This document shows positions 12,131 to 63,567 of a stretch of DNA of 64,000 nt, piece by piece. The stretch comes from Multifurca ochricompacta (taxonomy: Eukaryota > Basidiomycota > Agaricomycetes > Russulales > Russulaceae): NCBI GenBank assembly GCA_022496185.1, contig WTXG01000173.1, positions 1 through 64,000 on the forward strand. The letters run 5' to 3'. The notes under the pieces are model-generated. The model was not told the DNA's origin. It did not search any database and saw nothing but the letters and a program-made list of their open reading frames with translations. A program made the position numbers and the translations under genes. The stretch's first letter is position 1, and each line of letters starts with the position of its first letter.

Positions 12131-12226
12131 AGGCCCTGCTGAAGATCTGGGGTGAAGGCTTCCCAAGTTGCAGCTTGGGAAGTTCAAGAGGGATTCTGAT
12201 GAAGGACAGTAAACCTGTATTGGATA

Positions 12227-13656
12227 TAGTGATTGTCAAGGGTTTTCATACCTGCGCAGGTAAGCGCCATGGGTTTTGCTGGGTATGGGTACGGGTATAC
12301 AGCTCCCAACCTGTGGAAACCTGTACCCATGTGGCGGGTTTGGCAGGTATAGGTGCCAATTATCCATTGACAAGATCAGTAGAAATTCTAAGATAAAACA
12401 CATCTGCAGCCACAAAAATAAAAGATCTCATCTGATGTATGCTATAGGGTATCTTTAAATATGTTCTAGTATTATCATATGAAATATCAAAGCAGATTAA
12501 CGGTGCGATGTAAAATAAAAGTGTTATCAGTGATCCACTTCTTGAAAATCATGATGCACCTGTTTTATCAACGTGTGACCAATTCTGCCAGTCTGGCACT
12601 ATCTAAAATACTCTCTAGACTACTTTAGATTATAATATAATCTAATTATCAAATTAGTTTACTGAAAAAAGGCCCGTGTGTATCTACAAGCTGCATGGGG
12701 CAGTGACTACATTGCATCGCATGGTGGTCTGACCTCCTTCCTATTAAGGAAGGTTGACTTAAACGCACAAGGACAGTTGCGCTTGTATGAAATGAAAGCA
12801 GAATAATAAAATAATAATGTAAATAAAGGATCCTTTTAATCTTCTGAACATAAACCAACAATATTTGAGGAATCTTGAGTAGCCATAAATGAATGTGTTG
12901 TGTCCAAGTGCTTATCTCCTTGACCGGGATGGCCCAGGCCACTTATCCGAAATGCACAGAAACACAAAGAACAGTCATGCTCATATAAAATTAAAACCAG
13001 AATAATAAAATAAAAATGGAATAATAAATTATCTTAATCTTATGAACATAAAATAGGAATTTTGAGGGATCTTGAGTAGCCATAAATGAACACGTTGTGT
13101 CCAAGTGCATATCTCCTTGACCAGGATGTCCTGGGCCAGATGTCCAAAATGCGCGATGCAAGTAAAGAACTTGCATGCATTTCATTTTATGGGTAACCCA
13201 GGTATCAAAACAATTACCCAGGGGTTACCCCTGCAAATTGCTATGTGTTCATCAAATTTTTTTGCATTCTGTGTGGTTATCTGACAGGCTTTTCATCAAT
13301 GTTCTATAACATCCTATCTAATCATCTCTGTATACTGTATTTTAGTTGTGCTTGTATAAAATTGAAAGCAGAATAATAAAATAAAAATGGAATAATGAAT
13401 TATCTTAATCTTCTGAACATAAAATAAGAGTCATTGAGGGATCTTAAGCAGCCACAAATGAACATGTTGTGTATCTTCTTGGTCCGGGAAGTCCCAGGCC
13501 AGGTATCCAAAATGCGCGATGCAAGTAAAGAACTTGCACGCATTTTCACAGGTGACCCGCGGGTAAGCCACGGGTTACCTGTACCCGTCACTACGGGTAC
13601 AGGTATGGGTACAGGTACCAACAAGGATACCCCAGGGTTACCCCTGCCAATCACTA
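12227..13656 (+). mobile_element. hAT-type non-autonomous element F1
   Basis: It starts TAGTGATTGTCAAGGG and ends CCCCTGCCAATCACTA, imperfect terminal inverted repeats of about 16 bp, with ATTGGATA duplicated (12219-12226 and 13657-13664). Eight-base duplications and TAGNG ends are hAT hallmarks. No transposase is encoded. It carries GC-rich GGGTAC-type subterminal repeats at both ends and three diverged copies of a roughly 200-bp unit inside. It sits in the reverse LTR G. Confidence 0.92.
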
Positions 13657-30634: not shown

Positions 30635-31549
30635 TGCTGCTCAAACTGATCTGTAATTCCCTTTTTTGTTCATTACAGCCCAACTCACTCTTGCACAAAC
30701 AAGCTCTCACAAAAAGCTTCAAAGTCTTTCCCACTGCTTCTTCTGTGAGCTTTCCTATCTACTGTCTGTGCACCTTAACTAGTGATTGTCAAGGGGTTTC
30801 ATACCTGCACAGGTAAGCGCTGCAGGTTTTGCTGGGTATGGGTACAGGTATATGGCTCCCAACCCATGGAAACCCATACCCATGCAGCGGGTTTGGCAGG
30901 TATAGGCGCCAATTATCCATTGACAAGATCAGTAGAATTTCCAAGATAAAACACATCTGCAGCCACAAAAATACAAGATCTCGTCTGATGTATGCTACAG
31001 GGTGGCATTAAATATGTTCTAGTGTTATCCTACAAAATATCAAAGCAGATTAATGGTGCGATGTAAAATAAAATTCTTATCAGTGATCCACTTTCTTGAA
31101 AACCATGATACATCTGTTTTATTAATGCGTGACTAATTCTGCTAGTCTGGCACTATCTAAAATACACTCTAAACTAATATAGACTATTCTATAATCTAAT
31201 TATCAAATTACTTTATTGAAACAAGGCCTGCATGTGTCTACAAGCTGCATGGGGCTAGTGTTTAAAAGTCCGGTTGCCCTAACCGAAAAAGCGACCGGAA
31301 CTGGACCGGACCCAACCAAATGCAACCAGACCACCGGTTGCGGTTGCCCAGATTCTGTGACTTATCGGTTGCCGGTTGCATGCTATTACAGAATATTGAA
31401 AGACCGATGAAAACCGGTTTAGACCGGTTGCAACCGGTCTATTTCCATATATGGCATAGCCAAAGTCCACAGCCATGGGAATACCCGACTCGCAGATCCG
31501 AGTCACCCGGGAGAAATTCCTGTGGGCTCCTAAACTGGAAATAAATGGC

Positions 31550-33885: not shown

Positions 33886-34644
33886 ATATTTTCTGGCATG
33901 CTCTTTGATAAATATCATCCTCATTATGATATGATTATTACTACACTACTATACCCCTATTACATAAATTTCATATTGTAGGACCGGTTCAGACCGGTTG
34001 TGGACCGGCAACTGGACTGAAAAAGACCGTTTTTCGGTCTTTAGGTGGTCCGGTCCAGTTATCTGGACATAAGGTGCAACCGGCAACTGCAACCGGTTGC
34101 CGGTTGTGTCCCATTATGGTCAAAAAACTGGACTGGACCAGACTTTTAAACACTACATGGGGCAGTGACTACATTGCATCACATGGTGGTCTGACCTCCT
34201 TCCTATTAAGGAAGGTTGACTTATACACGCAGAAATGTGCATCCAGGGACTAGGACAGTCGTGCTTGTATGAAATGAAAGCAGAATAATAAAATAATAAT
34301 GTAAATAAAGGATCCATTTAATCTTCTGAACATAAACCAACAATTTTTGAGGAATCTTGAGTAGCCATAAATGAATGTGTTGTGTCCAAGTGCTTATCTC
34401 CTTGACCAGGATGGCCCAGGCCATTTACCTGAAATGCACAGAAACACAAAGAACAGTTGCACTTGTATAAAATTGAAACCAGAATAATAAAATAAAAATG
34501 GAATAATAAATTATCTTAATCTTATGAACATAAAATAGGAATCTTTGAGGGATCTTGAGTAGCCATAAATGAACATGTTGTGTCCAAGTGTGTATCTCCT
34601 TGACCGGGATCTCCTGGGCCAGATGTCCAAAATGTGCGATGCAA

Positions 34645-35220
34645 TGTTATGACCCTTGCCTAGCAACCCGCTTTTCTTTCATCTCCCCAATGACGATCCT
34701 ACTTTACCACCTACACTACATTTCTTGATCATGTCTCCATCCTGGGATCCATCACATGCCTTGCTCCCTTCCCCATGACCACCTTTGTCCTTGTTTATAC
34801 CGCTTTGCTTATGATTGTTTCCTTATCTTCTTATCATTACGACCAGACACTTACTTAATTCCCTATCAGAAGCTCGGCTTTACGCCATCCGCTTTCATAT
34901 ATTTGGGCCCACATGACTCCTGCTATCTTATCTTTAGGTGCTCATTCGATTACATATATAAGTCTGCTGTAACTACCTTGTAGACCTCAGACTCAACTTA
35001 TTGAATACATTGGTGCTTGTCTTCAGGACATCCCCTTTGCTCCTTGACTCGTTTGTCTCAGTGATTCTGTCACTTCTCCACTCAACATTGTCTTTGGGAA
35101 CAGCCCCTTTGACTTTGACTCATCTCATTTCACTCCAAGAGGCCTTATTGGTTTCTTATCTGATTATGAATGATATGCTGTCACACAAGTTGTGCAGAAC
35201 ATCCTGCACCGGACGTAACA
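34645..35220 (+). repeat. Solo LTR family A in F5
   Basis: 576 bp, TGTTATGACCC to CCGGACGTAACA, with TGCAA on both sides (34640-34644 and 35221-35225). Confidence 0.94.
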
Positions 35221-35911
35221 TGCAAGTAAAGAACTTGCATGTGTTTCATTTTATGGGTAACCCAGGTATCAAAACAATTATCCAGGGGTTACCCCTACCA
35301 ATTTCTATGTGTTCGTCAATTTGTTTTGCATTCTGTGTGGTTATCTGACAGGCTTTTCATCAATGTTCTATAACATCCTATCTAATCATCACTGTATACT
35401 GGATTTTAGTTGTGTTTGTATAGAATTGAAAGCAGAATAATAAAATAAAAATGGAACAATTAATTATCTTAATCTTCTGAACATAAAACAAGAGTCATTG
35501 AGGGATCTTAAGCAGCCACAAATGAATGCGTTGTGTATCTTCTTGGTCTGGGAAGGCCCAGGCCAGTTATCCAAAATGCATGATGCAAGTAAAGAACTTG
35601 CATGCATTTTCACAGGTGACCCACGGGTAACCCATGGGTTACCCATACCCATAGTGATGGGTATGGGTACGGGTACAGGTACCAACGAGGATACCCCAGG
35701 GTTACCCCTGCCAATCACTAACCTTAACACCCCACAGGATGATGCAGTTTGCTGCTCATCCTGAACTGTTTGGCTAGCCCTTCGGGGTTCTTGCAAAAGG
35801 TGTGAGGGACCCTTAAGTGGGAGAATCACCTTAAGCTCCTTGAGTGTGCACTAGGTATTAGTAGCTTCATAGTTGTAGCTGGGTTTTTGTCCCATAGATA
35901 GTTTTAGTAGG

Positions 35912-38134: not shown

Positions 38135-39324
38135 CTAGATTGGCATACCATCATCATCCTGAACCAGGGAGAGGTAGTCGTCGGCTATGGCGTAGTGGTC
38201 TGCATCATAGTTCTCCTTTTCTTCATCTGTGGGGCAAATGTGTGTTCATAGAAAACCATAGGGCCCCTGTCTCCCACAGCAAAAGCAGCCGTCATAAACA
38301 TGACAATCGATTTCTCGGTGGCCAGCGTTGTGGGAGAGACATTTGCCACACCACCCCGATGGGTTCTGGACAGTGGGGGCTTGCATGAGTTGTCAGAATA
38401 GGCATTGACGACTCCAGTGTGAGGTGCTCTGGCAATGTTGACATCGTTTCTTGGCCATGGGGCAACACCAGCTAAGATGGTACTTGCTGTTGCAGCGCCA
38501 GCAAAGCTTGCTGTCAGGGTTTTTGTGGAGACATGGCATTTCGAAACAGTGGGGGTTAAGCCGGGGTGCAAGGTTGAGGCAGCAACGAGGGAGTGGTCGT
38601 GCAAAAATGTCAGCGTACCATTCAGATATGATTTGGTATGCCTCTCCTTGTTCCAATCTCATCCTGATGCTCGCCAGGTGATGCTCTATGTCAAAGACCC
38701 CTCGGTTAATTTTTACCATTTGTCACTCATAGTTGCGACGCTGCATCTCCAAGTTGTCCCTGAGTGCCTGGAACTTATGCAACCGCGCAATTTTGGTGGT
38801 TAGTTGTGGCATACGTAGGTCTCGGAGCACCTCATTGATGGTGAAGGTGTGCGGGTCATGGGCTGATAGGTGTTGCAAATGTTCTGGCCCCAGGACATAA
38901 TGAAGTCTGTTGATGGTCCTTTCTTCTAGGTACACTGGAGCCCTGTAGACTGGCCCTCCCTTCTCTAGACAGCCGGCTACATCCATACCTTTGTTGGTGT
39001 AGTAAATATATTTGGCTACCTCCGTAGTGCTGTCGTTCTTGGATGACAGGATCATGAGTGGGAAGTAGAATTGTGAGTTGGGGTTGTTCGGGAAAAATGG
39101 GAACTCTGGGGACTCATCACTGAAGTCCACGTTGATCAGGTCATTGGGATGGGGGTGTTGGGCAAATTAAAATCTTTGTCGATGTTGATGATTCTGTCCC
39201 CTTCAGCCACTTTGACGGTCGCATCATAGTCAATAGGAGAAAGTGGGCGAGAAGGAGGATGCACAGGAGTAGATAGGGGAAACACATCGATGGCAGCAGA
39301 GGCGTGGACTTTGGATGGTGACAT
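38135..39324 (-). pseudogene. ORF3 of gypsy E3, unrecognised CCHC-rich protein
   Basis: Proposed start ATG at 39324 (MSPSKVHASAAIDVFP), stop TAG at 38137-38135, about 395 codons. Shared with gypsy 2 and 3: SPIDYD near the N-terminus, EFPFFPNNPNS, GMDVAGC and PVYLEER, a helical middle, then CWRCNSKYHLSWCC, CQHCQSTSHWSRQC, CGKCLSHNAGHREIDC and a C-terminal SLVQDDDG. Lesions: a frameshift near 39135, a TGA near 38723, stops near 38393 and 38250. The two C-x2-C-x4-H-x4-C knuckles suggest nucleic-acid binding. The position after the chromodomain end is the same as in the other two elements. No named family is recognised. Confidence 0.7.
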
Positions 39325-39427
39325 GGATATTATTCTAGTCAGTTGTGGGGGAGTGGACTGTCTAATAGCATATATTCTGTCTTGCTCTTTATCTGCCTCT
39401 GGATGGCGCCTATAGAAGTCATTGATA
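39325..39427 (-). pseudogene. End of gypsy E3 pol, truncated
   Basis: The minus strand reads INDFYRRHPEADKEQ in the frame leading to ORF3. This aligns with the last residues after the chromodomain in gypsy 3 (LILEFHAQHPEAPKDN). Everything upstream is missing; a MITE begins at 39428. Confidence 0.55.
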
Positions 39428-39642
39428 CAGTGCCTCACAAAACTGAGTCAATGTTTTGCACTTTTGCACTGTTTGTTGAATATTGCATCAGCCAAAACAA
39501 ATATAAACAAAGTCTTGGTAGACCATAAAAGGTACAAGATAAGGGTTATGTAATGCAACAATAATTATGTAAGTCTGATCAAAACCTGTGGAGCTATGCC
39601 CATTTCAAATTGGGGACTCATTGACTCAGTTTTGTGAGGGGG
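39428..39642. mobile_element. 215-bp Tc1/mariner-type MITE
   Basis: The left end CAGTGCCTCACAAAACTGAG and the right end, inverted, share about 20 bp (CTCACAAAACTGAGTCAATG). TA lies on both sides (39426-39427 and 39643-39644). CAGTG ends and TA targets are typical of Tc1-like elements. The interior has no coding capacity. Confidence 0.8.
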
Positions 39643-40269: not shown

Positions 40270-40827
40270 AACCTGATAGAAGAATCAGAACCTGAGAAAA
40301 GGAAACAACTCACCAAACCTGCAAGGTGATGACAATGTGTCCCTTGCTTTGACACCGAACCCAACCTCGGAGCTCAATAATGCTCCAATCGAATCCTACA
40401 ACAGATTTATAGTTCTTGCAAGAAGACTCCCCAACCAGAAACTGAAGACATACCACCTGTAAACCAAAACCGCCTTACATCGCTTGCCAGCGATCCCCAA
40501 CTGACAGCGTCCAGAGTAATGGACCTGTGAACCCAGAATACTTGAACCCTGATTTGAAGCAACGTTGCTTCATGAACAGACCATCAAATCCATCGAAAAG
40601 AAACTTGACACCATGACTCTGAAGTCCCGGTTTGACATCCTGAACCTAACTCACCAGAAGATCCCCTTTTCAACCCATCACATACAACCAACCCATCATT
40701 GTTTTCAACATTTCCAGAAGCTGCAATGTCAATCACACAACCTGGAAAGGCACACCGAGCATCCTTTGGAATGACGACCCAGCCAAGCATGCCTGGAGGA
40801 AACAATGGACATGAAAACATACCACAG
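40270..40827 (+). pseudogene. Gypsy 4, 5' internal piece before gypsy 2
   Basis: The start (ACTCACCAAACCTGCAAGG) parallels 32200. A short frame reads TIKSIEKKLDTMTLKSRF. The piece stops at CACAG (40823-40827), the target duplication of gypsy 2, and continues at 51686. No 5' LTR of gypsy 4 is visible. Confidence 0.55.
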
Positions 40828-41415
40828 TGTTACGACCAGGGCCCAGCAGCCCTATTTTCTTTACCCTCCCAACAGAGATCCCACTCGCCCACCGATGTTA
40901 CACTTCCTTATTATGTCTCCCTCCTGGGACCCCTCACATGCACTGCTCCCATCCCTGTGACTGTTGTTTGGACTTATGTACATACTATTTGCCCATGCTT
41001 ACCCTTCTTATCTTGTTATCTCCTTATCTTATGATCAGACACTTACTTAGTTCCCTATCAGAAGCCAGGCTTTACGCCCTCCACTTTCGGATATTTGGAC
41101 CCACTTGACTCCGTACTCTTATCTCATAGACGCCCGCTGAGTTATGTATATAAGTCCGCTGTAGCTACCTAGTAGACCTCAGACTCGACTTATTGAATAC
41201 ATCGGTGCCTGTCTTCTGGACATCCCCTGTGGAACCTTTGACTCGTTTGTCTCAGTACTTTCGGTACTTCCCCACTCAACATAGTCATCAGGTACAGCCC
41301 CTTCGACTTTGACTCATCCCACCCATACTCCAAGGAGCCTTATTGGTTTCTTACCCAAACTTGTAAAGTTACGCTGTCACACACATCGTGTGGAACGTCC
41401 CGCATCGGACGTAAC
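40828..41415 (+). repeat. 5' LTR of gypsy 2 (family A)
   Basis: 588 bp, TGTTACGACCAGG to ATCGGACGTAACA. TATATAAG lies near 41146; the presumed transcript start AGACTCGACTT is at 41181-41191. One base there has changed relative to the 3' LTR. Confidence 0.95.
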
Positions 41416-41418
41416 ATC

Positions 41419-44870: not shown

Positions 44871-45740
44871 CTCTACCCCTTCGGCCTGGGCGCGAGCATT
44901 ACATGTAACCTCTGTGTACACTAGTTGCTTCAAATCATTGAAAATACCAGTACATTTCGAAACTACACAGAGGATGGCCGACCATGACATCTTGATTGAC
45001 TCAGGAGCCACCGACAATTTCATCAGCCCCCGGATGGCAAGAACCATGGGTTTGGGGATGCTGGAACTCCCCCAAGAAAAGAACATTTGGAATATAGACG
45101 GAATGGCCAATAAAGCCAGAAGAATTACCCACTACACTGACCTCAACGTCCAAGTGGGAGAAAGGACAAAGGCAATTCAATTTCTTGTCACAAACCTAGG
45201 AAACAAAGATTTAATCTTAGGGTATCCATGGTTGGCTGCATTCGAACCAAAGATCAACTGGAGCGATGCAACCATGGATAAAGAGTTCTACCCTGTTCTC
45301 ATCACATTGCTAGGGTACAACTATGCCATCCAACATACAAAAATACAATGGTTAGAGGAAGAAGACTCAGGTCACTGTTATGCTATGAAAGCATCAGAAC
45401 TCGCCCAGAAGGTGGTGGAAGGGCATGCAGAGAAGACCTTTGAGGAGGTAGTGCTGGGAGTTTACCACCGACATTGGAAGGTGTTTTCAGAAGAAGAGTC
45501 ACAACGCTTCCTGCCCACATGACCTTGGGACCATGCCATCGAATTCACACCTGATACCCCGTCTGCCATTGATTGCAAAATCTACCCACTGTCCCAGAAC
45601 GAACAAGCAGCGCTCACCACATTCCTCGAAGAGCACCTTCCAAAGGGGTATATTCATCCGTCAAAGTCACCATATGTGTCACCCTTCTTCTTCATCAAGA
45701 AAAAGGACAGCAAACTTCGACCTGTTCAGGACTATCGATG
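44867..45740 (+). pseudogene. Gypsy 2 protease and start of RT
   Basis: The retropepsin active site reads ILIDSGATDNFIS near 45000, followed by DLILGYPWL typical of chromovirus proteases (the second conserved motif). The linker leads into the RT start ([22 protein letters not shown]). A TGA at about 45521 breaks the frame, and F6 is inserted at 45749 after GATAAATG. Protease would cut the polyprotein. Confidence 0.9.
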
Positions 45741-45748
45741 GATAAATG

Positions 45749-47200
45749 TAGTGATTGTCAAGGGGTTTCATACCCACGCGGGTAAGCGCCGCGGGTTTTG
45801 CCGGGTACGGGTACAGGTATACGGCTCCCAACCCGTGGAAACCCGTACCCGCGCGGCAGGTTTGGCGGGTATAGGCGCCGATTATGCATTGACAAGATCA
45901 GTAGAATGTCCGAGATAAAATACATCTGCAGCCACAGAAATACAAGATCTCGTCTGATGTATGCTACAGGGTGGCGTTAAATATGTTCTAGTATTATCCT
46001 ACAAAATATTAAAGCAGATTAATGGTGCGATGTAAAATAAAATCCTTATCAGTGATCCACTTTCTTGAAAACCATGATACATCTGTTTTATTAACGCGCG
46101 ACCAATTTTGCCAGTCTGGCACTATCTAAAATACACTCTAGACTAATATAGACTATTCTATAATCTAATTATCAAATTACTTTATTGAAACAAGGCCCAC
46201 GTGTGTCTACAAGCTGCATGGGGCAGTGACTACATTGCATCACATGGTGGTCTGACCTCCTTCCTATTAAGGAAGGTTGACTTAAACGCGCAGAAATGTG
46301 CATCCAGGGACTAGGACAGTTGCGCTTGTATGAAATGAAACCAGAATAATAAAATAATAATGTAAATAAAGGATCCATTTAATCTTCTGAACATAAAACA
46401 ACAATTTTTGAGGAATCTTGAGTAGCCATAAATGAACGCGTTGTGTCCAAGTGCTTATCTCCTTGACCGGGATGGCCCGGGCCATTTACCCGAAATGCGC
46501 AGAAATGCAAAGAACAGTCGCGCTTGTATAAAATTGAAACCAGAATAATAAAATAAAAATGGAATAATAAATTATCTTAATCTTATGAACATAAAATAGG
46601 AATCTTTGAGGGATCTTGAGTAGCCATAAATGAACGCGTTGTGTCCAAGTGCATATCTCCTTGACCAGGATCTCCCGGGCCGGATGTCCGAAATGCGCGA
46701 TGCAAGTAAAGAACTTGCACGCGTTTCATTTTATGGGTAACCCAGGTATCAAAACAACTATCCAGGGGTTACCCCTACCAATTTCTATGTGTTTGTCAAT
46801 TTTTTTTGCATTCTGTGTGGTTATCTGACAGGCTTTTCATCAATGTTCTATAACATCCTATCTAATCATTGCTGTATACTGGATTTTAGTTGTGCTTGTA
46901 TAAAATTGAAAGTAGAATAATAAAATAAAAATGGAATAATTAATTATCTTAATCTTCTGAACATAAAACAAGAGTCATTGAGGGATCTTAAGCAGCCACA
47001 AATGAACGCGTTGTGTATCTTCTTGGTCCAGGACGGCCTGGGCCGGTTATCCGAAATGCGCGATGCAAGTAAAGAACTTGCACGCGTTTTCACGGGTGAC
47101 CCGCGGGTAACCCGCGGGTTACCCGTACCCGTAGTGACGGGTACGGGTACGGGTACGGGTACCAACGAGGATACCCCAGGGTTACCCCTGCCAATCACTA
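45749..47200 (+). mobile_element. hAT-type element F6 in gypsy 2 RT
   Basis: 1452 bp with GATAAATG duplicated exactly (45741-45748 and 47201-47208). It keeps the most CpG sites of all F copies (for example GCGCGGCAGG, where others read TGCAGC or CATGCA), so it may be the youngest. Three internal units start near 46341, 46541 and 46912. Confidence 0.96.
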
Positions 47201-47208
47201 GATAAATG

Positions 47209-49772
47209 CCTATACCATAAAGAATGCCTATCCTATTCCCCTCATCTCCGAGCTCATTGATACCATGCGAGATAAGTCCCTCTTTTCCAAAATGGACGTC
47301 CAGTGGGGATACAACAACATCAGGATTAAGGAGGGAGATCAATGCAAGGCAGCATTTAAGACCAATCAGGGACTCTTCGAACCAAATGTTATGTTCTTTG
47401 GTCTTACCAACTCACTGGCTACTTTTCAATCTATGATGAATCACATCTTCCACGACCTTATTCTCACAGGTGAAGTAGTGGTGTACATGGACGATATCCT
47501 AGTGGCTACAGTTGATGATCTGGTCCATCACCGGGAATGGGTTCACCAAGTGCTGGACATCCTACATGAACACGATCTGTATCTCAAACCAGCCAAGTGT
47601 TCATTCGAGCAACAAAGCGTAGAGTACCTGGGAGTTATCCTGGAAGGAGGACATGTATGGATGGACCCCGTAAAGGTACAAGGGATCCGAGAGTGGCCCA
47701 CACTGACATGTGTCAAGGATGTGTGATCCTTCATTGGATTCTGCAATTTCTACCGACAATTTGTACATGGGTTTTCAGGAATCGCCCAACCGTTGAACGG
47801 GTTGCTAAAGAAAGATGTACCTTGGCATTGGGAAGGAGAGCAACAGCGAGCCTTCGAACAGATCCAAGACATTGTGGGTTCAGAACCGGTCCTCTTGCAA
47901 CCAGATCTAGCAAAACCCTTTGAACTTGAAGTTGATGCTTCACACTTTGTGAACAGTGCAGTACTCAACCAACGGGATGCAACAGGGTTGCTTCACCCAG
48001 TCGCCTTCTATTCGGAAACCTTCTCACCAGCGGAACACAATTACGACATCTGGGATAGAGAACTGCTCACCATTGTAAAAGCACTACGACATTGGCGACC
48101 ATATTTAGCAGGGACCCCTCATAAGACCATTATCCACACTGACCACTCCAATCTACTCTGTTGGAAAGAACCCCACAAGATCAGTCGACAAGTGGCTCGT
48201 GAAGTTTTGGAGCTGGAGGAGTACAGTTTCATGTTAAAACACATTGCAGGAAGTCGCAATGCATGTGCAGATGCCCTGTCACGACGACCTGACCTAAACA
48301 ACGGAGAGGAAGATAACAGCAACATCACAGTACTCCCTGAAGAAGTCTTCGCAAAGACAGCCATTGTCAGTCTCCACGACATGGACTTATGGGCTCAGGT
48401 GTCACAAAATATGAACCAACCATTATGTCAATCATGGGCTGACGCACACAACCTGAAAAAGGTTGACGGATTATGGTGGAAGGACAGAGATCGACTCATT
48501 GTCACCGGTGGCGACAACATTAAGAGGGGGGTGATCCATTTTCACCACAACCTTCCCTCTGCAGGGCACCCAGGTATTGCCAACACATACGCCTTGGCTA
48601 AACGAGATTACTGGTGGCCAAATATGAAGAAGGACATGGAGGACTATGTCAAAGGATGTGTGGACTGCCAAGCCAATAAAGTAAACACGCACCCGCACCC
48701 ACCAGCACTATTCCCGATCACGCCTACAGCTTTGCTACCATTCCAGACCATTGCGATGGATTTCATTGTCAAACTTCCAGTCTCCAGAGGTTTTGATTCC
48801 ATCTTGACTATTACTGACCATGACTGTTCGAAAGCAGCATTGTTCATACCATGCAATGAGTCCATCACAGCGGAAGGTGTAGCCAAACTTTACCTGGATC
48901 ACATCTACAGGCATTATGGCCTCCCGGAAAAGATTATCTCAGACCGTGACCCACGCTTCACTTCCACATTTGCCAGAGCACTCTGTAAAGTGCTGGACAT
49001 AACCCAGAACATCTCAACAGCCTACCACCCACAGACAGATGGACAATCAGAAAGGACAAACCAGTGGCTCAAACAATATCTTCAATTCTGGTGCAACAGA
49101 CGACAGGATGACTGGGCTGACTGGCTGGCAATGGCAGAATTTGCACATAACTCCTGGCCCAATGGCACCACAAAGACTCCCCCATTTTCACTTATCATGG
49201 GATGGACACCCCAGACCACCTGGGCCAAGAAGCCCACAAACGTCCCATCAGCTGCGCAGCATATCAGCCAATGGGAGGAAATCAGGAAATCGGCCAATGA
49301 GAACCTGTTAAAGGCGCAAGAAGCCCTCTCAGGAAGACCTTCGAAGTTCACACCTTATCGGACCAATGACCTTGTCTGGTTGGATGGGAAGCACATTCAC
49401 ACGTCACATCCAACAGCCAAACTAGCACCCCGACGTCATGGACCTTTCATGATAACAAGGAAGCTGTCAGATGTGTCATACAAGCTCAAACTTCCATCCA
49501 CATGGAGAATCCATCCAGTCTTCCATGCCAGACTTTTGACACCTTACAAAGAAACGTCCCTACATGGGGAGAACTTCCTGAGACCTCCCCCTGAATTGGT
49601 TGATGGAGAAGCAGAATGGGAAGTGGAGCAAATTCTAGACTCCTTACATAAAGGCCGAGGGCGCAAGTTACACTACCTGATCAAGTGGAAGGGTTTCCCA
49701 GACTCTGACAATTCGTGGGAACCAGCCAGGAATATCTTTGCCCCAGATCTGATCATGGAGTTCCACTTATGA
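47209..49772 (+). pseudogene. Gypsy 2 pol: RT, RNase H, integrase, chromodomain
   Basis: RT resumes at [14 protein letters not shown] and carries the catalytic [12 protein letters not shown] (near 47485). A single TGA at 47724 (gypsy 3 reads Arg) precedes a 659-codon open frame from 47793. That frame holds RNase H (FELEVDASHF, HTDHSNL), the integrase zinc site (HFHHNLPSAGH with CVDCQANK), the catalytic core (MDFIVKLP, SDRDPRFTS, GQSERTNQW, all acidic residues present) and a chromodomain (LHYLIKWKGFPDSDNSWEP). It ends at a TGA after EFHL, where gypsy 3 runs 12 residues longer. The chromodomain would tether integration to modified histones. Confidence 0.93.
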
Positions 49773-49870
49773 CATCCCCAAGCGCCCAGAAACAGTTAAA
49801 AGGAGGACAGACTCTCAACTTCTTTCCCCCAGAACAACACTTCACCAGCAATGTCCTAACCACAACTAAG

Positions 49871-51064
49871 ATGTCCTCCTCTTTCATCGCTGCCTCCACT
49901 GCCATTGACACCTTCGCCGCCACTACTGTGGTCATAGAGGCTTTCCCTTCCACTCACCCCTCCACTCGTCCTTCCTCCCCTATTGACTACGAAGCTGCTG
50001 AAGAACGAGTCAAGAACCAATCACCTAATCCCAACGATGATTTCACTCACTCCGAAGAACCCCACCCCAACGACCTCCTCGACATGGAACAAGATGACGA
50101 TGTACCCGAGTTCCCCTTCTTTGTCAATAACCCGAATTCCTCTATGTACTTCCCCCTTGAGATCACCATGGCCAATGGAGAAAAGGTCATAGCTAAGTAC
50201 ATATTTTACACCAATGGAGGGATGGATGTCGCGGGGTGTATGAAAAAGGATGGACCTGTCTATGGAGCCCCAGTTTACTTGGAGGAACGGTATACTGGCC
50301 GTCTTCACCACACAATGAGTGATGAACAGTTGGGACACCTTGTGGCTGATGATCCCTGAGTGTTTGCAATCGACGAGGTACTGAATGACATGTGACTTCC
50401 ACGTCTCAAGGCCAAAGTAATGAGACTGCGGAAAACCCTTATGCTTTGCACCATGCTCAATACCCAGTACAAGGAGTACATGAAGCAAATGACAAGGCTC
50501 ACGAGGGGAATGTTCCAAGTGGAGCAGGAGTTGACGGAGATTCAGAAAAGGCTGGAGAAAGGGGATGCATATCAGACAATTGCCGAGAGGTATGCAGACA
50601 CCTACGCACGACCCCTTCCCCCATGATCATTAGGGGTGGCACCACAACTGCTGCCAAACCAGTTTGAGATGCCGCGTATGCACGAAAACCCCCGCAGAGA
50701 GACTTGCTGGCGATGCGACAGCAAGTATCACATCAGCTGGAATTGTCCTCTCAACCACAAATGGTGTCGTCACTGCCGAAGTAACCTGCATTGGAGCCGG
50801 TTCTGTATTTTCCAACATCTGGGTGTTGCTCCCACCATTGTCAATCCCTCGGGCTGGTGTGGAAAATGTCTGCGACACAACGTGGGACATTGTGAACTCG
50901 ATTGCCCCATCTATGACCTGTGTCACCAGTGTGGGCGACGTGGCCCATATGGTTTCCTGCGCACACACCAATGCGCCGTAGATGAAACTTACACCGTAGA
51001 AGATCGGAACCTGGCAGACAATTATGTGGACTTGGTCCAGGATGACGATGGTGCGCGTTTCTAG
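49871..51064 (+). pseudogene. ORF3 of gypsy 2, unrecognised CCHC-rich protein
   Basis: Start ATG at 49871 (MSSSFIAASTAIDTFAA), about 75 bp after the natural pol end. One frame runs to the stop at 51062, about 397 codons, broken only by three TGA codons (50357, 50393, 50624). Order: threonine/proline-rich N-terminus with SPIDYEAAEERVKN; EFPFFVNNPNS; GMDVAGCMKKDGPVYGAPVY; a helical, coiled-coil-like stretch (QYKEYMKQMTRLTRGMFQVE); knuckles CWRCDSKYHISWNC and CRHCRSNLHWSRFC; CGKCLRHNVGHCELDC; CHQC-x11-HQC; acidic end LVQDDDG. RNA or DNA binding is likely from the knuckles. It sits where some LTR elements carry env or other ORF3 genes, but no signal peptide or membrane span is seen. Family unknown to me. 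Confidence 0.75.
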
Positions 51065-51081: not shown

Positions 51082-51095
51082 AGAAAGGAGGGTGA
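51082..51095 (+). promoter_or_regulatory. Polypurine tract of gypsy 2
   Basis: GAAAGGAGGGTGA abuts the 3' LTR. Gypsy 3 has AGAAGAGGGGGTGA in the same place. Confidence 0.7.
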
Positions 51096-51685
51096 TGTTA
51101 CGACCAGGGCCCAGCAGCCCTATTTTCTTTACCCTCCCCAACAGAGATCCCACTCACCCACCGACGTTACACTTCCTTATTACATCTCCCTCCTGGGACC
51201 CCTCACATGCACTGCTCCCATCCCCATGACTGTTGTTTGGACTTATGTACATACTATTTGCCCATGCTTACCCTTCTTATCTTGTTATCTCCTTATCTTA
51301 TGATCAGACACTTACTTAGTTCCCTATCAGAAGCCAGGCTTTACGCCCTCCGCTTTCGGATATTTGGACCCACTTGACTCCGTACTCTTATCTCATAGAC
51401 GCCCGCTGAGTTATGTATATAAGTCTGCTGTAGCTACCTAGTAGACCTCAGACTCAACTTATTGAATACATCGGTGCCTGTCTTCTGGACATCCCCTGTT
51501 GAACCTTTGACTCATTTGTCTCAGTACTTTCGGTACTTCCCCACTCAACATAGTCGTCGGGTACAGCCCCTTCGACTTTGACTCATCCCACCCATACTCC
51601 AAGGAGCCTTATTGGTTTCTTACCCAAACCCGTAAAGTCGCGCTGTCACACACATCATGTGGAACGTCCCACATCAGACGTAACA
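51096..51685 (+). repeat. 3' LTR of gypsy 2 (family A)
   Basis: 590 bp, TGTTACGACCAGG to ATCAGACGTAACA, followed by the CACAG duplication. It keeps the perfect complement of the primer site at 51450-51460. Confidence 0.95.
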
Positions 51686-51690
51686 CACAG

Positions 51691-54986: not shown

Positions 54987-56168
54987 TGTTACAACCTCGA
55001 CCAAGCACTCCTCTTTTCTTTTCACTCCCTCACTCGGACCCCATGTGCCCACCTACATTACATTTCTTGATCATGTCTCCTTTGTTACAACCATTGCCAA
55101 GTCTCCCCATTTTCTTTACCCTTCCCAACAAGAACCCCTCTTTACCACCCACCCTACACTTTCTGATCACATCTCCATCCTGGGATCTGTCACATGCCTT
55201 ACTTCCCTCCCCGTGACCTGCATTGTACTTGTTGACTCACTGTTTGCTTGTGTTTGCCTTCTTATCTCCTTATCTCTTTATCTCTTTATCTTTACGACCA
55301 GACACTTACTTAATCCCCTATCAGAAGTGAGGCTTTATGCCATCCACTTTCATATATTTGGGCCCACCTGACCTTGTTATCCTTATCTCATAGGTGCTTG
55401 CTAGATTATGTATATAAGTCTGCTGTAGCTACCTTGTAGACCTCAGACTTGACTTATTGAATACATTGGTGCCTGTCTTCTGGACATCCCCTTTGAATCC
55501 TTGACTCATTCATCTCAGTGCTTTCAGCACTTTTCTGCTCAACATTGTCCTAGGGAACAGCCCCTTTGACTTTGACTCGCTCCACTTAAAACTCCAAGAA
55601 GCCTTATTGGTTTCTTACCTGAACCCACAGATCGCGCTGTCACACAAGTCATGTGGAATGTCCTGCACTGGACGTAACATCCTTCCTGGGATCCATCATA
55701 TGCGCTACTTCCATCCCCGTGACTGTGTTTGTCCCTGTTGACTCGTCTTTGCTTACAAATACCTTTCTTATCTTCTTATCTGTATGACTGGACACTTACT
55801 TAATTCCCTATCAGAAGCCAGGCTTTATGCCCTCCACTTTTGGATATTTGGACCCACTTGACTCCAATGCTCTTATCATTAGATGCCCATTTCCTTACAT
55901 ATATAAGTCCGCTGTAACTACACTGTAGACTTCAGACTCAACTTATTGAATACATCAGTGCCTGTCTTCTGGACTCCCCTTTGAACCCTTTGACTCATCT
56001 GTCTCAGTACTTCTGGTACTTCCCTGCTTAACATTGTCTTAGGGGACAGCCCCTTTGACTTTGACTTGTCCCACTTGAAACTCCAAGGGGCCTTATTGGC
56101 TTCTTATCTGAATATATGATGAACGCTGTCACACAAGTTGTGTGGAACGTCCCACACTGGACATAACA
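54987..56168 (+). repeat. 5' LTR of gypsy 3 (family A), split by a solo LTR A
   Basis: Pieces 54987-55082 and 55685-56168. TATATAAG at 55900-55907 and AGACTCAACTT, the presumed transcript start, at 55934-55944. Confidence 0.93.
55083..55679 (+). repeat. Solo LTR family A nested in the same family
   Basis: 597 bp, TGTTACAACCATTGCC to CTGGACGTAACA, with TCCTT on both sides (55078-55082 and 55680-55684). Confidence 0.95.
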
Positions 56169-58710: not shown

Positions 58711-61700
58711 GTGACGATGGATAAAGATTCGTATCCAACTATCATTACGTCATTGGGCTATGATTACACCATCAGACACCCAACAGTAAGGGCCACAAGC
58801 ACAGATGAAGAAGATCCTGGTCGTTGTTATGTCACCAAGGCATCTGAGTTAGCCCAAAGAGCAGTACAAGGGCAGGTGGAGAGGACTTATAGTGATATAG
58901 TGCCAAGCACCTATCACTGGCACTGGAAAGTGTTCTCTGAAGAAGAGTCACAGCACTTTCCACCTGCCCAACCATGGGATCATGCTATAGACCTGCTCCC
59001 TGATGCGCTGTTGGCAATAGATTGCAAAATCTACCCACTGTCCCAGTCTGAGCAGGTAGCATTGACGGAATTCCTTGAGGAACATTTGGCAAAAGGATAT
59101 ATTTGCCTGTCCAAGTCACAGTATGCCTCGCCCTTCTTCTTCATCAAAAAGAAGGACGGCAAGCTGCGACCAGTCCAGGACTATCGACGAATTAACACTC
59201 ACACTGTGAAAAACACCTACTCCCTGCCACTTATCTCCAAGCTCATTGATACCATGAGAGACAAGTCCCTTTTCTCGAAAATGGATGTGCAGTGGGGTTA
59301 CAACAATGTCAGAATTAAAGAGGGTGACCAATGCAAAGCGGCGTTCAAAACAAACCAAGGACTGTTCAAACCAAATGTCATGTTTTTTGGTCTTATGAAC
59401 TCACCAGCAACATTCCAATCCATGATGAATCACATCTTCTGTGATCTCATTCTTACTGGTGAAGTGGTAGTCTATATGGATGACATCCTAGTGGCCACCT
59501 CGAACAACTTGAGCCACCATCAAGAGCAAGTGCATCAGGTGCTGGATATATTACAAGAACACGACCTGTACCTCAAACCAGCCAAGTGCTCCTTTGAACA
59601 ACAGAGTGTTGAGTACCTAGGAGTTATCCTAGAGGGAGGACAAGTGCACATGGATCCTATTAAGGTGCAAGGGATCCAAGAATGGCCTGTGCCAACTTGT
59701 GTCAAAGACATCCGATCATTCATTGGATTCTGCAACTTCTACCAATGCTTTGTCAAGGGATTCTCAGGCATCGCACGACCATTGAACGATCTCTTGAAAA
59801 AGGATGTGCCATGGCATTGGGGCACCGCACAACAACAGGCTTTCGAACAGATTAGGGACCTCGTTGGTTCAGAACCAGTACTCATTCAACCAGATCTGAG
59901 TTGCCCCTTTGAACTAGAAGTGGACACCTCTCACTTTGCAAATGGAGCAGTACTATACCAAAGAGATGTTGCACAGATACTCCATCCAGTGGCATACTAC
60001 TCTGAGACCTTCTCCCCAGCTGAACAAAATTATGACATCTGGGACAGGGAGCTCCTAGCCATAGTCAAGGCACTTCGACACTGGCGACCCTACCTAGCAG
60101 GAACTCCCCATAAAACCATCATTCACACTGATCATTCCAATCTATTATATTGGAAAGAGCCCCACAAAATCAGTTGACGTGTAGCACAAGAGGTCCTGGA
60201 GCTCGAAGAGTATAACTTCACCCTGAAACACATTGCTGGAAGCCAGAATGCCAGAGCAGATGCACTATCACGGAGACCTGATATGCATACAGGAAAGGAC
60301 AACAATAACGATGTCACCGTCCTCCCAGAGGAAGTGTTTGCAAAGACTGCCGTAGTCAGTCTCCACAATATGGACTTATGGGCACAGGTTTCACAAAACA
60401 TGAACCAAGAATTATGCCATTCATGGGCTGATGCACACAACTTAAAAGAAGTCAATGGCCTTTGGTGGAAGGATGGGATCAGCTTGTTGTCACCGGTGGC
60501 AACAACATTAAGAGGGGGGTGATCCATTTTCACCACAACCTCCCCTCTGCTGGCCACCCTGGCATTGCGAACACCTATGCCCTTGCCAAGAGAGACTATT
60601 GGTGGCCCAATATGAAACAGGATGTTGCAAACTACATGCAGGGATGCGCAGCATGTCAAGCAAACAAAGTCAATATGCACCCAAGAATCCTGCTGCTACA
60701 CCCCATTACTCCCATCTTGTCAATCCCTTTCCAGACCATCACCATGGACTTCATTGTCAAGCTGCCTGAGTCACAGGGCTTTGATACCATCCTCACAATC
60801 ACCAACCATGATTGCTCCAAAGCAGCCCTATTCATACCCTGTAACAAAACTATCACAGCTGAAGGAGTGGTGAGACTATACCTGAACCACGTATACCGCC
60901 ACTATGGACTCCCCAAGAAAATCATATCCAACCAAGATACCCAATTTACATCAGCATTCACCAAAGCCTTATGCAAGACATTGGACATCACACAGAACAT
61001 TTCCACAGCTTATCATCCACAGATGGATGGACAGTCCGAGCAAACAAACCAGTGGTTAGAACAGTACCTTCAGTTTTGGTGTAACAGACAACAAGATGAC
61101 TGGACAGAGTGGCTATCGACCACGGAGTTTGCTCACAATTCATGGCCCAATGGGATGACAAAAGCTACCCCCTTCTCCTTATCATGGGCTGGACTCCATG
61201 CACCACATGGACAGATAAGCCCACTAACGTCCCTTCAGTAACCCAACAAATACACCAATGGAAAGACCTACGACAATTGGCCAATGAAAACCTGGCAAAG
61301 GCACAGCAACTTCTAGCTGTGCAGCCAAGCATGTTCACACCTTATCAGACCAATGACTGGGTCTGGCTCGAGGGAAGAAACATTCACACATCACACCCCT
61401 CAGCCAAACTAGTGCCCCAACATCACAGACCCTTCCAGATCAAAAGGAAGCTGTCAGACATATCTTATGAACTGCAACTGCCGCTGAAATGGAAGATCCA
61501 CCCTGTCTTCCATGCCAAGCTTCTGACCCCATATAAGGAAACCTCCATTCATGGGGAAAACTTCCCAAGACCCCCACCTGACCTTATCAATGGAGAAGCA
61601 GAGTGGGAAGTGGAGTGCATTCTAGACTCAGGACGAAAAGGCCGAGGGCACAAACTGCACTACCTGATTAAGTGGAAGGGATTCCCAGACTCTGACAATT

Positions 61701-61786
61701 CGTGGGAGCCAGCTGGGAATATCTTTGCCCTGGCCCTTATCTTGGAGTTCCACGCCCAACATCCAGAGGCGCCCAAAGACAATTAA
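58711..61786 (+). pseudogene. Gypsy 3 pol: RT, RNase H, integrase, chromodomain
   Basis: RT motifs [22 protein letters not shown] and catalytic YMDDILVAT (near 59475), then RNase H and the integrase zinc site (HFHHNLPSAGH, CAACQANK). The second catalytic Asp of integrase reads Asn (ISNQDTQF near 60930, gypsy 2 has SDRDPRF). Lesions: TGA at 60175 (gypsy 2 CGA), frameshifts near 60470 and 61180. Chromodomain LHYLIKWKGFPDSDNSWEP, and the pol end HPEAPKDN with TAA at 61784. Confidence 0.92.
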
Positions 61787-61860: not shown

Positions 61861-63567
61861 ATGTCTTTCATTGCTGCCAATGCCACTGTCAATGCTTTCA
61901 CCACCACTGTAGTTGTCAAGAATTTCCCTGCCACCCATCCTTCCACTTGTCCCTCTTCTCCCATTGATTATGAGGCTGCCGAAGCACGGGTCAAGAACCA
62001 GTCCCCTAACCCCAATGACGACTTCAACCACTGTGAGGAGCCACACCCAAATGACCTGTTGGGCATGGAGTCAGACAATGAAGTTCCTGAGTTCCCATTC
62101 TTTGCCAATAACCTGAACTCATTGATGTACTTTCCTCTCGAGATCACCATGGCTGACAGAACGGTAGCCATTGCTAAGTATATCTTCTACACGAATGGAG
62201 GATGGATGTGGCTGGATGCATGAAGAAGGATGGCCCTGTCTATGGGGTGCCAGTCTATTTGGAGGAAAGGTATACCGGCTGCCTCCATCACACCATGAGT
62301 GATGAACAGCTGGGGCATCTGGCTGCTGAAGACTCCCACGCTTTCGCAATCGACAAAGTCATGAATGACATGCGCCTTCCGCATCTCAAGGCTGAGGTAA
62401 TGAGACTGCAGAAGAACTTGACGTTGTGCACCACACTTAACCAACAGTATCAGGAGCATGCCAAGCAGATGACAAGGTTGACCAGTGGGATGTTCCAGAT
62501 AGAGCAGGAACTGGTGGAGATTCGGAAGCGGTTAGAGAAGGGGATGTCAAACAATCATGCTGCTGGTTATACTGACTGTGGTTAGTAGCGGTTAGGCTAG
62601 AAAGACAAGTATACTTCAGAGGTTGAAGAAACTCTATATTAACTATACTACTGACCTAGAAAGACAAGTATCTACAGAAGACGTTAGTCAAAGGAAAGTA
62701 GAAAGTATAGTAAGACTTACACTTCAGAGGTTGAAGAAACTCTGAAGTGGAAGAGACGAAACAGACACCCTTATATACCCATGGGGGCCAGGGGAAATGG
62801 TCTGTGCACACTGGGAATAAGTCCACAAGTGCCGGACAATAAACAGAGAGGGATAAAGGCTATTGGCCAAAGAGATATCACATGCTTACTGCACATTACT
62901 AAGTCCATCACTAATCAGCTGAGTAAGGTGAGAAAGAAATGTAATAAAGATAACATAAAAAGTCCGATACTCCGAGATCTAATCTAATCTAATCTACAGC
63001 TGAAGCGAACCTTAGATGCCTGAAGCATCTCCAGACACATCCTGTGTCAACAGGGGACACATACCAGACTATTGCTGAGAGGTATGCAGACACTTATGCG
63101 CAACCTCTCCCCCACAATCATTGGGAGCTGCACTGACGCTGTTGCCTAACTGATTTGAAATGCCATGGATGCATGAAAACCCCTGTGGAGAGACCTGCTG
63201 GCGATGCAACAGCAAATATCACATCAGCTGGAACTGCCCCCTCAATTGCAAGTGGTGTCATCATTGCCACAGCAACCAACATTGGAGTCGGTTCTGCATC
63301 TTCTGCCACATTGGAGTGGCCCCAACAATCATTAACCCATTGGGATGGTGTGGCAAGTGCCTGCATCACAATGCTGGACATCGCGAACTCAATTGTCCCA
63401 TCCACGATCTGTGCCATCAGTGTGGCCAGTGCAGTCCATATGGATTCCTGCATACCCACCAATGTCCCCAGGATTCAGACAAAGAGAATGACACCCTTGA
63501 TGACTGTAATGTAGCTGATGACTACCTGGAGCTGGTACAGGATGATGACAGTATGAGTCATTTCTAG
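61861..63567 (+). pseudogene. ORF3 of gypsy 3, split by solo LTR D
   Basis: ATG at 61861 (MSFIAANATVNAFTTT), 75 bp after the pol stop. Same order as in gypsy 2: SPIDYEAAEARVKN, EFPFFANNLNS, DVAGCMKKDGPVYG, PVYLEERYTG, helical middle, then after the LTR CWRCNSKYHISWNC, CHHCHSNQHWSRFC, CGKCLHHNAGHRELNC, CHQC-x11-HQC and ELVQDDD. Lesions are a one-base loss near 62205, the LTR at 62545, a one-base loss near 63110 and a stop near 63147. Stop TAG at 63565-63567. Confidence 0.75.
62545..63052 (-). repeat. Solo LTR family D in gypsy 3 ORF3
   Basis: 508 bp, TGTCAAACAATC to CTGTGTCAACA, with GGGGA on both sides (62540-62544 and 63053-63057). A copia LTR inside a gypsy element. Confidence 0.95.

What the first reader, a model, noticed from the sequence alone, without database searches (positions are those of the whole stretch)
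49871..51064. An extra conserved ORF (ORF3) downstream of pol in chromoviruses
Seen: gypsy 2 carries a separate frame of about 397 codons that starts 75 bp after pol and ends just before the polypurine tract. Gypsy 3 (61861-63567) carries the same. Its only breaks in gypsy 2 are three TGA codons. It has PEFPFF, GMDVAGC and PVYLEER blocks, a helical middle, four Cys/His clusters and an acidic end. Known: typical Tf1/sushi-type chromoviruses end with pol. Inference: an accessory nucleic-acid-binding protein of the element, perhaps a second nucleocapsid-like factor. No env features are seen.
Basis: partly seen in the sequence, partly recalled or inferred. Interest (0 to 1): 0.88.

Follow-up and report, generated by a model that had tools for sequence, protein, structure and literature searches.

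The report
Four-knuckle accessory protein of fungal retrotransposons
A very common family of jumping genes in this fungal genome carries an extra, strictly preserved gene for a probable DNA/RNA-binding protein that matched no catalogued protein family, made as a separate protein in one branch and joined to the enzyme polyprotein in another.

Summary
Window 49871-51064 is a 397-codon frame between pol and the 3' LTR of a chromovirus, broken only by three TGA codons. It is no local oddity: 53 of 104 scored copies in the host assembly have no stop, and a degenerate 27-base motif of the frame occurs 791 times. Selection is strong (median dN/dS 0.02-0.09 by copy set; 0.044 against 0.068 for the adjoining pol end, 666 pairs). 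Fifteen of 16 Cys/His ligands are invariant in 59 copies, the sixteenth in 58. New: a second family, also in this window (38135-39324, minus), has an ORF3 52-55% identical and in frame with pol; one genomic copy is a single 889-codon frame with integrase, chromodomain and all of ORF3. In the first family ORF3 has its own ATG and no fixed frame relation to pol. No Pfam, PHROGs or PDB family matched; the only relatives found are two truncated Multifurca proteins. Best reading: an element-encoded nucleic-acid-binding accessory protein working with Pol. Function is inferred; both AlphaFold models failed. New variant of a known kind.

The parts
40828..41416 (+). 5' LTR of gypsy 2 (family 1), TG...CA, preceded by target-site copy CACAG at 40823-40827
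   Evidence: 96.4% identical to 51096-51685 over 590 columns; 5-bp duplication read from the flanks
44914..45522 (+). protease part of gypsy 2
   Evidence: Pfam gag-asp_proteas E=2e-08
47265..47726 (+). reverse transcriptase part of gypsy 2 pol
   Evidence: Pfam RVT_1 E=3.4e-25
47793..49799 (+). RNase H, integrase and chromodomain part of gypsy 2 pol; pol stop TAA at 49797-49799
   Evidence: Pfam RT_RNaseH, Integrase_H2C2, SH3_Tf2-1, Chromo, weak rve; stop position
49800..49870 (+). 71-nt spacer; pyrimidine tract followed by AG at 49820-49832
   Evidence: read; Y4+AG present 15-60 nt upstream of the ATG in 51 of 51 family-1 copies examined and 0 of 8 family-2 copies
49871..51064 (+). ORF3 of gypsy 2, 397 codons plus TAG, TGA at codons 163, 175, 252
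50705..50746 (+). Zn knuckle 1, CX2CX4HX4C
   Evidence: ligands invariant in 59 of 59 aligned copies
50765..50806 (+). Zn knuckle 2, CX2CX4HX4C
   Evidence: first Cys kept in 58 of 59 copies, the other ligands in 59 of 59
50858..50905 (+). Zn knuckle 3, CX2CX6HX4C (a second invariant His leaves the ligand open)
   Evidence: 59 of 59
50921..50974 (+). Cys/His cluster 4, CX2CX11HXC
   Evidence: 59 of 59
51082..51092 (+). polypurine tract
   Evidence: read; not tested functionally
51096..51685 (+). 3' LTR of gypsy 2, followed by CACAG at 51686-51690
61109..61786 (+). end of gypsy 3 pol with chromodomain
   Evidence: Pfam SH3_Tf2-1 and Chromo
61861..63567 (+). ORF3 of gypsy 3, split by an insertion at 62545-63053
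   Evidence: tblastn pieces, self-comparison
38135..39324 (-). ORF3 of gypsy 1 (family 2), decayed, 55% identical to family 1 over query residues 58-394
   Evidence: in-frame Met at 39324
39136..39447 (-). one open frame holding the pol tail (DFYRRHPEADKEQ...) and the start of ORF3: the family-2 pol-ORF3 junction in this window

Best explanation
ORF3 is a real accessory protein of a very numerous chromovirus group in this (probably russuloid) fungus: an acidic N-terminal region, a conserved PEFPFF...GMDVAGC...PVYLEER region, a probably helical middle, a basic region with four zinc-knuckle-like clusters, and an acidic tail. Most likely mechanism (inferred): it binds the element's RNA or cDNA through the knuckles and works beside Pol, most plausibly with integrase and its chromodomain in the particle or pre-integration complex. 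In family 2 it is encoded as the C-terminal part of Pol (shown by continuous frames). In family 1 it stands apart and starts at its own ATG, by reinitiation after the pol stop or from a shorter RNA (route not shown).
For: Shown: 53 of 104 scored copies without a stop. In 59 aligned copies 100 of 102 in-frame stops are TGA and 86 of the 102 lie in columns whose majority codon is CGN, so stops look like CpG decay after insertion. dN/dS medians 0.030 (23 fetched open family-1 copies, 253 pairs, 202 usable), 0.075 (22 copies picked by DNA similarity, 231 pairs), 0.024 (6 low-ranked open copies, 12 usable of 15 pairs) and 0.086 (8 family-2 copies, 28 pairs), against 2.8 and 3.2 in the wrong frames of family 1. 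In 666 pairs of 37 copies ORF3 0.044 and adjoining pol end 0.068. 15 of 16 Cys/His ligands invariant in 59 copies of two families that are 52-55% identical, the sixteenth in 58. Fusion in family 2: chromodomain-to-ATG distance is 138 nt in 7 of 7 readable copies, with no stop in 5 and one TGA in 2; genomic copy L080 has one uninterrupted 889-codon frame with integrase, chromodomain and all of ORF3. Separation in family 1: a pol stop, variable spacer, and all three frame relations among correctly read copies; base -3 of the ATG is A or G in 50 of 51 family-1 copies but T or C in 8 of 8 family-2 copies. The Zn region is basic (16-18 K+R against 7-8 D+E) and the ends acidic (4 copies). Inference: fusion in one lineage suggests that the separate protein also acts with Pol.
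Against: No function was measured. No significant match to any nucleic-acid-binding family: Pfam zf-CCHC is not reached by ORF3; best PDB sequence hits (LIN28, a retroviral nucleocapsid) have E of about 0.1, which is chance level. Both structure predictions failed (mean pLDDT 42 and 38). 13 of 51 family-1 copies have an ATG within 70 nt upstream of the ORF3 start. Wrong-frame controls in family 2 are only about 1.0 and 1.7. Copies were picked by similarity to the query, which biases dN or DNA distance, and the pol comparison covers only its C-terminal 1.4 kb.
Confidence: 0.55

Rival explanations
1. ORF3 is an antagonist of host silencing or of another fungal defence (a suppressor that binds small RNA or double-stranded RNA), kept because it protects the element rather than because it takes part in replication.
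For: Knuckle-bearing protein with basic core; strong constraint; separately started in family 1. CpG-type decay of copies would fit a methylating host.
Against: An arms-race protein would be expected to change faster than Pol, yet ORF3 changes less than the pol end in the same 666 pairs (0.044 against 0.068). Fusion to Pol in family 2 fits a replication role better.
Confidence: 0.15
2. ORF3 is a second structural or Gag-like protein (extra nucleocapsid or capsid layer).
For: Overall lay-out (acidic N-terminus, probably helical middle, C-terminal knuckles) resembles Gag; the first two clusters have retroviral spacing CX2CX4HX4C.
Against: Profile comparison with the element's own Gag gives probability 0.2% (a single gag sequence and a shallow profile); gypsy 3 already has a Gag with Retrotrans_gag and one zf-CCHC; in family 2 the protein would be made at Pol dosage, which is low for a shell protein (inference).
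Confidence: 0.15
3. ORF3 is simply a lineage-specific C-terminal extension of integrase, ancestral in the fused form, that split off in family 1 and has no separate activity.
For: Continuous frame in family 2; constant 138-nt junction in 7 of 7.
Against: In family 1 the split form keeps its own ATG in good context and is under equal or stronger constraint. Which form came first was not determined. This rival overlaps with the best explanation.
Confidence: 0.1
4. Captured host gene, or a chance open frame.
For: No known homologue family.
Against: 791 motif copies, 0 for the reversed pattern; of the first 100 listed chromodomain ends 63 have the ORF3 motif downstream on the same strand, 60 of them at 1119-1167 nt, against 2 with one upstream; dN/dS far below 1.
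Confidence: 0.03
5. Envelope-like or movement protein.
For: Position downstream of pol matches env; a mildly hydrophobic stretch lies at residues 2-22 (peak Kyte-Doolittle 1.28-1.75 in 4 copies; one exceeds the 1.6 often used for transmembrane segments, a recalled threshold).
Against: No other hydrophobic peak is higher in those 4 copies; in family 2 that stretch is internal to a fused frame.
Confidence: 0.02

Closest known systems
Fungal chromoviruses (Ty3/Gypsy with chromodomain), survey of Novikova et al. 2010, PMC2864245
   Same: LTRs, gag, protease, RT, RNase H, integrase, C-terminal chromodomain; [quoted passage not shown]
   Different: The text read does not say which element carries it, where it lies or what it encodes, so identity with ORF3 cannot be judged; that section says most full-length elements have one or two ORFs
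ORF3-bearing LTR retrotransposons of bdelloid rotifers, PMC5408684 (abstract and outline read)
   Same: A third ORF carried by LTR retrotransposons, several non-envelope types
   Different: The abstract names env-like, small transmembrane, GDSL esterase and DEDDy exonuclease types and no multi-knuckle protein
Orchid Ty3/Gypsy elements with an AlkB m6A demethylase ORF, PMC9289625 (abstract and outline read)
   Same: An extra RNA-acting ORF fixed in a Gypsy lineage
   Different: Enzyme with known homologues; none was found for ORF3
Retroviral or retrotransposon nucleocapsid (zf-CCHC, PF00098)
   Same: Two of four clusters have the CX2CX4HX4C spacing
   Different: No significant profile match; four clusters, two with other spacing; located after the chromodomain, not in Gag
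LIN28 tandem CCHC
   Same: Weak alignment over knuckles 1 and 2
   Different: E 0.08-0.1, not significant
Hypothetical proteins B0F90DRAFT_1669448 and B0F90DRAFT_1820906 of Multifurca ochricompacta
   Same: P0001 is 66% identical to L073 over 169 residues; P0001 and P0002 are 73% and 72% identical to the first query sequence over 43% and 39% of it
   Different: 209 and 155 aa, lacking the knuckle region; genomic context not seen

Membership tests
Chromovirus (Ty3/Gypsy) | pol with protease, RT, RNase H, integrase in this order | tested here: met
   Pfam hits to separate window pieces of gypsy 2 in that order; rve itself below its cut-off, Integrase_H2C2 well above
Chromovirus (Ty3/Gypsy) | chromodomain at the integrase C-terminus | tested here: met
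   PF00385 E=4.2e-14 gypsy 2, 3.6e-13 gypsy 3 and 3.2e-13 family-2 copy L080
Chromovirus (Ty3/Gypsy) | Gag with capsid domain and zinc knuckle | tested here: met
   Gypsy 3: Retrotrans_gag 2.7e-07, zf-CCHC 7.9e-05
Chromovirus (Ty3/Gypsy) | LTRs TG...CA with 5-bp target duplication | tested here: met
   Gypsy 2 only
Chromovirus, usual lay-out | coding region ends with pol | tested here: not met
   ORF3 follows pol separately (family 1) or in frame (family 2)
Retroviral nucleocapsid (zf-CCHC) | CX2CX4HX4C | tested here: inconclusive
   spacing met in clusters 1 and 2, not in 3 and 4; no zf-CCHC match in Pfam
Retroviral nucleocapsid (zf-CCHC) | binds and anneals element RNA | not testable with these tools
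   bench work needed
Envelope protein | signal peptide and transmembrane segment | tested here: inconclusive
   hydropathy only: peak 1.28-1.75 at the N-terminus in 4 copies; no dedicated predictor run
Pfam, PHROGs or PDB sequence families | significant profile or sequence match | tested here: not met
   best E-values 0.006 or weaker and below curated cut-offs
Gag-derived duplicate | homology to the element's own Gag | tested here: inconclusive
   hhalign probability 0.2%, single gag sequence against a shallow profile

The most novel reading that the evidence does not exclude
ORF3 founds an undescribed class of retroelement protein: a four-knuckle nucleic-acid-binding partner of chromodomain integrase, kept under tighter constraint than the adjoining end of Pol, that evolution has moved between a Pol-fused and an independently translated form, and whose cassette (ORF3 plus 3' LTR) is exchanged between elements at the pol/ORF3 junction. 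It could be what made this chromovirus group so numerous in this genome.
Probability: 0.3. Interest if true: 0.78.

Novelty: new variant of a known kind. Interest (0 to 1): 0.6.

Why it matters
Extra genes fixed in LTR retrotransposons are described as rare (abstract of PMC9289625), and such a gene can expose a step of replication or of the element-host contest that Gag and Pol alone do not cover. Here the extra gene has no relatives in the databases searched beyond two truncated fungal proteins, is kept at least as strictly as the adjoining end of Pol, and exists both fused to integrase-chromodomain and free. That natural pair makes a question directly testable: whether chromodomain elements need a dedicated nucleic-acid-binding partner at integration or packaging. 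It also suggests that some 'hypothetical proteins' of mushroom genomes are pieces of such elements.

Tried and rejected
Protein database searches: a single family-1 sequence found nothing at E<=1e-3 among 1660 candidates; the two-family profile found two Multifurca proteins at E<=1 among 4895; the fused family-2 query restricted to its ORF3 part found nothing at E<=0.01 among 1728, with candidate lengths tied to the 889-aa query. Scans of viral contigs and genome contigs found no relative (the latter holds bacteria and archaea only). Rfam and tRNA searches of the window were empty.

Structure: two AlphaFold jobs with only window pieces as alignment gave mean pLDDT 42 and 38; no fold search was run.

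Frameshift from pol into ORF3 in family 1: rejected because the frame relation takes all three values among copies. Spliced RNA: a pyrimidine tract with AG stands upstream of ORF3 in 51 of 51 family-1 copies (shuffle expectation 0.19 per copy, but copies are related) and 0 of 8 family-2 copies. For a donor, GTNNGT shared by gypsy 2 and gypsy 3 was found nowhere in the aligned 5' stretches and at two places in the pol part, 47874 and 48366, which the larger set did not cover; in 53 family-1 pol ends no position has it in 80%. Left open, not favoured.

Host-gene capture and chance: rejected. Homology to Gag: no support.

Rows dropped: one search kept 59 copies. Left out were 8 loci whose ORF3 length was not a multiple of three or far from 1194 nt (L003, L007-L011, L013, L027), identical duplicates, three copies (L075-L077) that my motif finder missed, and L069 (same place as L062). 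For the pol statistics, 37 family-1 copies passed the alignment filter. In one search nine rows (8 loci and gypsy 3) were read from a misplaced motif and are not used for frame or stop statements, nor are the two without a motif (L061 and gypsy 1).

Unresolved: of the first 100 listed chromodomain ends 37 lack an exact ORF3 motif downstream. At least five of them are ORF3 carriers (C2:315603, C10:19492, C15:29163, C19:23430, C33:85004); whether others lack ORF3 is unknown.

Full report
What is there. Window 49871-51064 is a frame of 397 codons plus TAG between pol and the 3' LTR of a chromodomain Ty3/Gypsy element (gypsy 2). Its only stops are TGA at codons 163, 175 and 252. The element has LTRs at 40828-41416 and 51096-51685 (96.4% identical) and a CACAG target duplication. 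Separate pieces match protease, RT, RNase H, integrase and chromodomain models. Pol's stop is the TAA at 49797-49799 and the spacer to ORF3 is 71 nt. Gypsy 3 carries the same frame, split by an insertion. A third copy, on the minus strand near 38135-39324, belongs to a second family.

It is a gene of the element, not an accident. A degenerate 27-base motif of ORF3 (NPSGWCGKC) occurs 791 times without mismatch and its reversed control 0 times. A chromodomain motif occurs 795 times. Both are rough copy numbers. Among the first 100 chromodomain places listed, 63 have the ORF3 motif within 1.5 kb downstream on the same strand, 60 of them at 1119-1167 nt, while 2 have one upstream and none has one on the other strand. 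Of the 37 others at least five are known ORF3 carriers; the rest were not read.

Selection. Nei-Gojobori medians are 0.030 for 23 fetched open family-1 copies (253 pairs, 202 usable), 0.075 for 22 copies ranked by DNA similarity (231 pairs), 0.024 for 6 low-ranked open copies (12 usable of 15 pairs) and 0.086 for 8 family-2 copies (28 pairs). In one search the same measure in the two wrong frames gave 2.8 and 3.2 in family 1, and about 1.0 and 1.7 in family 2. In 666 pairs of 37 copies ORF3 gave 0.044 and the adjoining 1.4 kb of pol 0.068. These figures are rough: copies were chosen by similarity, synonymous sites are near saturation, and elements recombine. In-frame stops in 59 copies are TGA in 100 of 102 cases, 86 of the 102 in columns whose majority codon is CGN, as expected of CpG decay after insertion.

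Anatomy. All four Cys/His clusters survive in both families: CX2CX4HX4C twice, CX2CX6HX4C and CX2CX11HXC; 15 ligand positions are invariant in 59 copies and one in 58. The region 256-370 is basic and both ends are acidic (4 copies). The most hydrophobic 19 residues lie at the N-terminus (1.28-1.75). ORF3 matches no Pfam, PHROGs or PDB sequence family at a meaningful level, and a comparison with one Gag of the same elements found nothing.

Two ways of making it. In family 1 the copies whose pol end was read in the right frame mostly end with a stop at the same place (TAA, or TAG one codon earlier in one subgroup), apart from decayed copies. The distance from the chromodomain to the ORF3 ATG takes all three values modulo 3, so a fixed frameshift cannot make a fusion. 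The ATG has A or G at -3 in 50 of 51 copies. Thirteen of 51 copies have another ATG within 70 nt upstream, which speaks against simple scanning in those copies. Five further copies picked from the motif list also have a pol stop and a separate ORF3 in another frame; one of these ORF3s is frameshifted and one has a stop near its end. In family 2 the chromodomain-to-ATG distance is 138 nt in 7 of 7 readable copies, always in frame; five are open and two carry one TGA. An eighth copy, L061, has no pol end upstream. The window's own family-2 copy keeps the in-frame junction at 39136-39447, minus strand. Genomic copy L080 has one uninterrupted frame of 889 codons with integrase, chromodomain and complete ORF3. 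In the family-2 search, matches without stops lie in open frames of up to 889 and 850 codons, whereas family-1 matches without stops reach at most 478. Base -3 of the family-2 ATG is T or C in 8 of 8, as expected of an internal methionine.

Mosaic elements. L023 and L034 are 91-97% identical in most pol windows and 77-86% in ORF3 windows; L023 and L014 are mostly 71-81% in pol and 83-93% in ORF3, with the change near the junction. Over 666 pairs, pairwise identity of ORF3 tracks the LTR (Spearman 0.53) somewhat better than pol (0.43). ORF3 plus 3' LTR thus appears to be exchanged as a block; 111 pairs have ORF3 closer than pol by at least 8 points and 11 the reverse, but choosing copies by ORF3 similarity favours the first kind.

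What it does. Shown: a conserved coding sequence, a conserved metal-ligand pattern, two arrangements. Inferred: nucleic-acid binding (from the knuckles and charge) and co-operation with Pol (from the fusion). I favour a partner of integrase and chromodomain in the particle or pre-integration complex over a silencing suppressor, because ORF3 changes more slowly than the pol end. How family 1 translates it is open: reinitiation, an internal promoter or splicing. The pyrimidine tract and AG upstream (51 of 51 in family 1, 0 of 8 in family 2) invite splicing, but no convincing conserved donor was found: none in the 5' stretches compared, two GTNNGT sites shared by gypsy 2 and gypsy 3 within pol, none kept in 80% of 53 pol ends.

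Distribution and prior art. The only relatives found outside this genome are two truncated hypothetical proteins of Multifurca ochricompacta, a member of Russulaceae. The host is thus probably a russuloid mushroom; this was not tested. Nine paper searches, section 5 and passages of PMC2864245, passages of PMC3248453, PMC2774666, PMC3411680, PMC5348765 and PMC5006619, and abstracts of PMC5408684 and PMC9289625 showed no description of this protein. The legend of figure 3 in PMC2864245 does name an additional ORF of unknown function, so extra ORFs in such elements are not new as a kind. The library lacks most subscription papers, and repeat libraries could not be searched.

Noticed in passing
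L023, L034, L050, L014 (family-1 loci): Elements are mosaics: pol and the ORF3-LTR block have different closest relatives, with change points near the pol/ORF3 junction.
   Followed up: partly
window 45749-47200: A 1.45-kb stretch inside gypsy 2 pol that recurs at 12224-13656 and 21718-23147, and in part at 30780-31260, 34153-34644 and 35220-35720: a separate repeat inserted in the element, itself internally repetitive.
   Followed up: no
window 62545-63053: Insertion of about 0.5 kb in gypsy 3 ORF3, 87.5% identical to window 2381-2887.
   Followed up: no
window 55083-56168: Two LTR-like units head to tail at the 5' end of gypsy 3 (55083-55679 and 55680-56168), about 77% identical, so an older solo LTR or a nested insertion adjoins the element.
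   Followed up: no
window 39430-39640: Family-2 element gypsy 1 is cut just upstream of ORF3 by unrelated sequence; a short stretch (ttgactcagttttgtgagg) stands at both ends of a 0.2-kb segment in opposite orientation, suggesting a small element with inverted ends (read).
   Followed up: no
L048 and L049 (G000:C34:60143-61333 and 66043-67233): Two ORF3 copies with the same score, identity and open-frame length lie in opposite orientation about 5 kb apart on one contig, possibly an assembly or inverted-duplication feature.
   Followed up: no
L061 (G000:C463): Family-2 ORF3 copy with no pol end upstream; other sequence, perhaps LTR, stands close before its ATG, so it may be a deleted or recombined element.
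   Followed up: no
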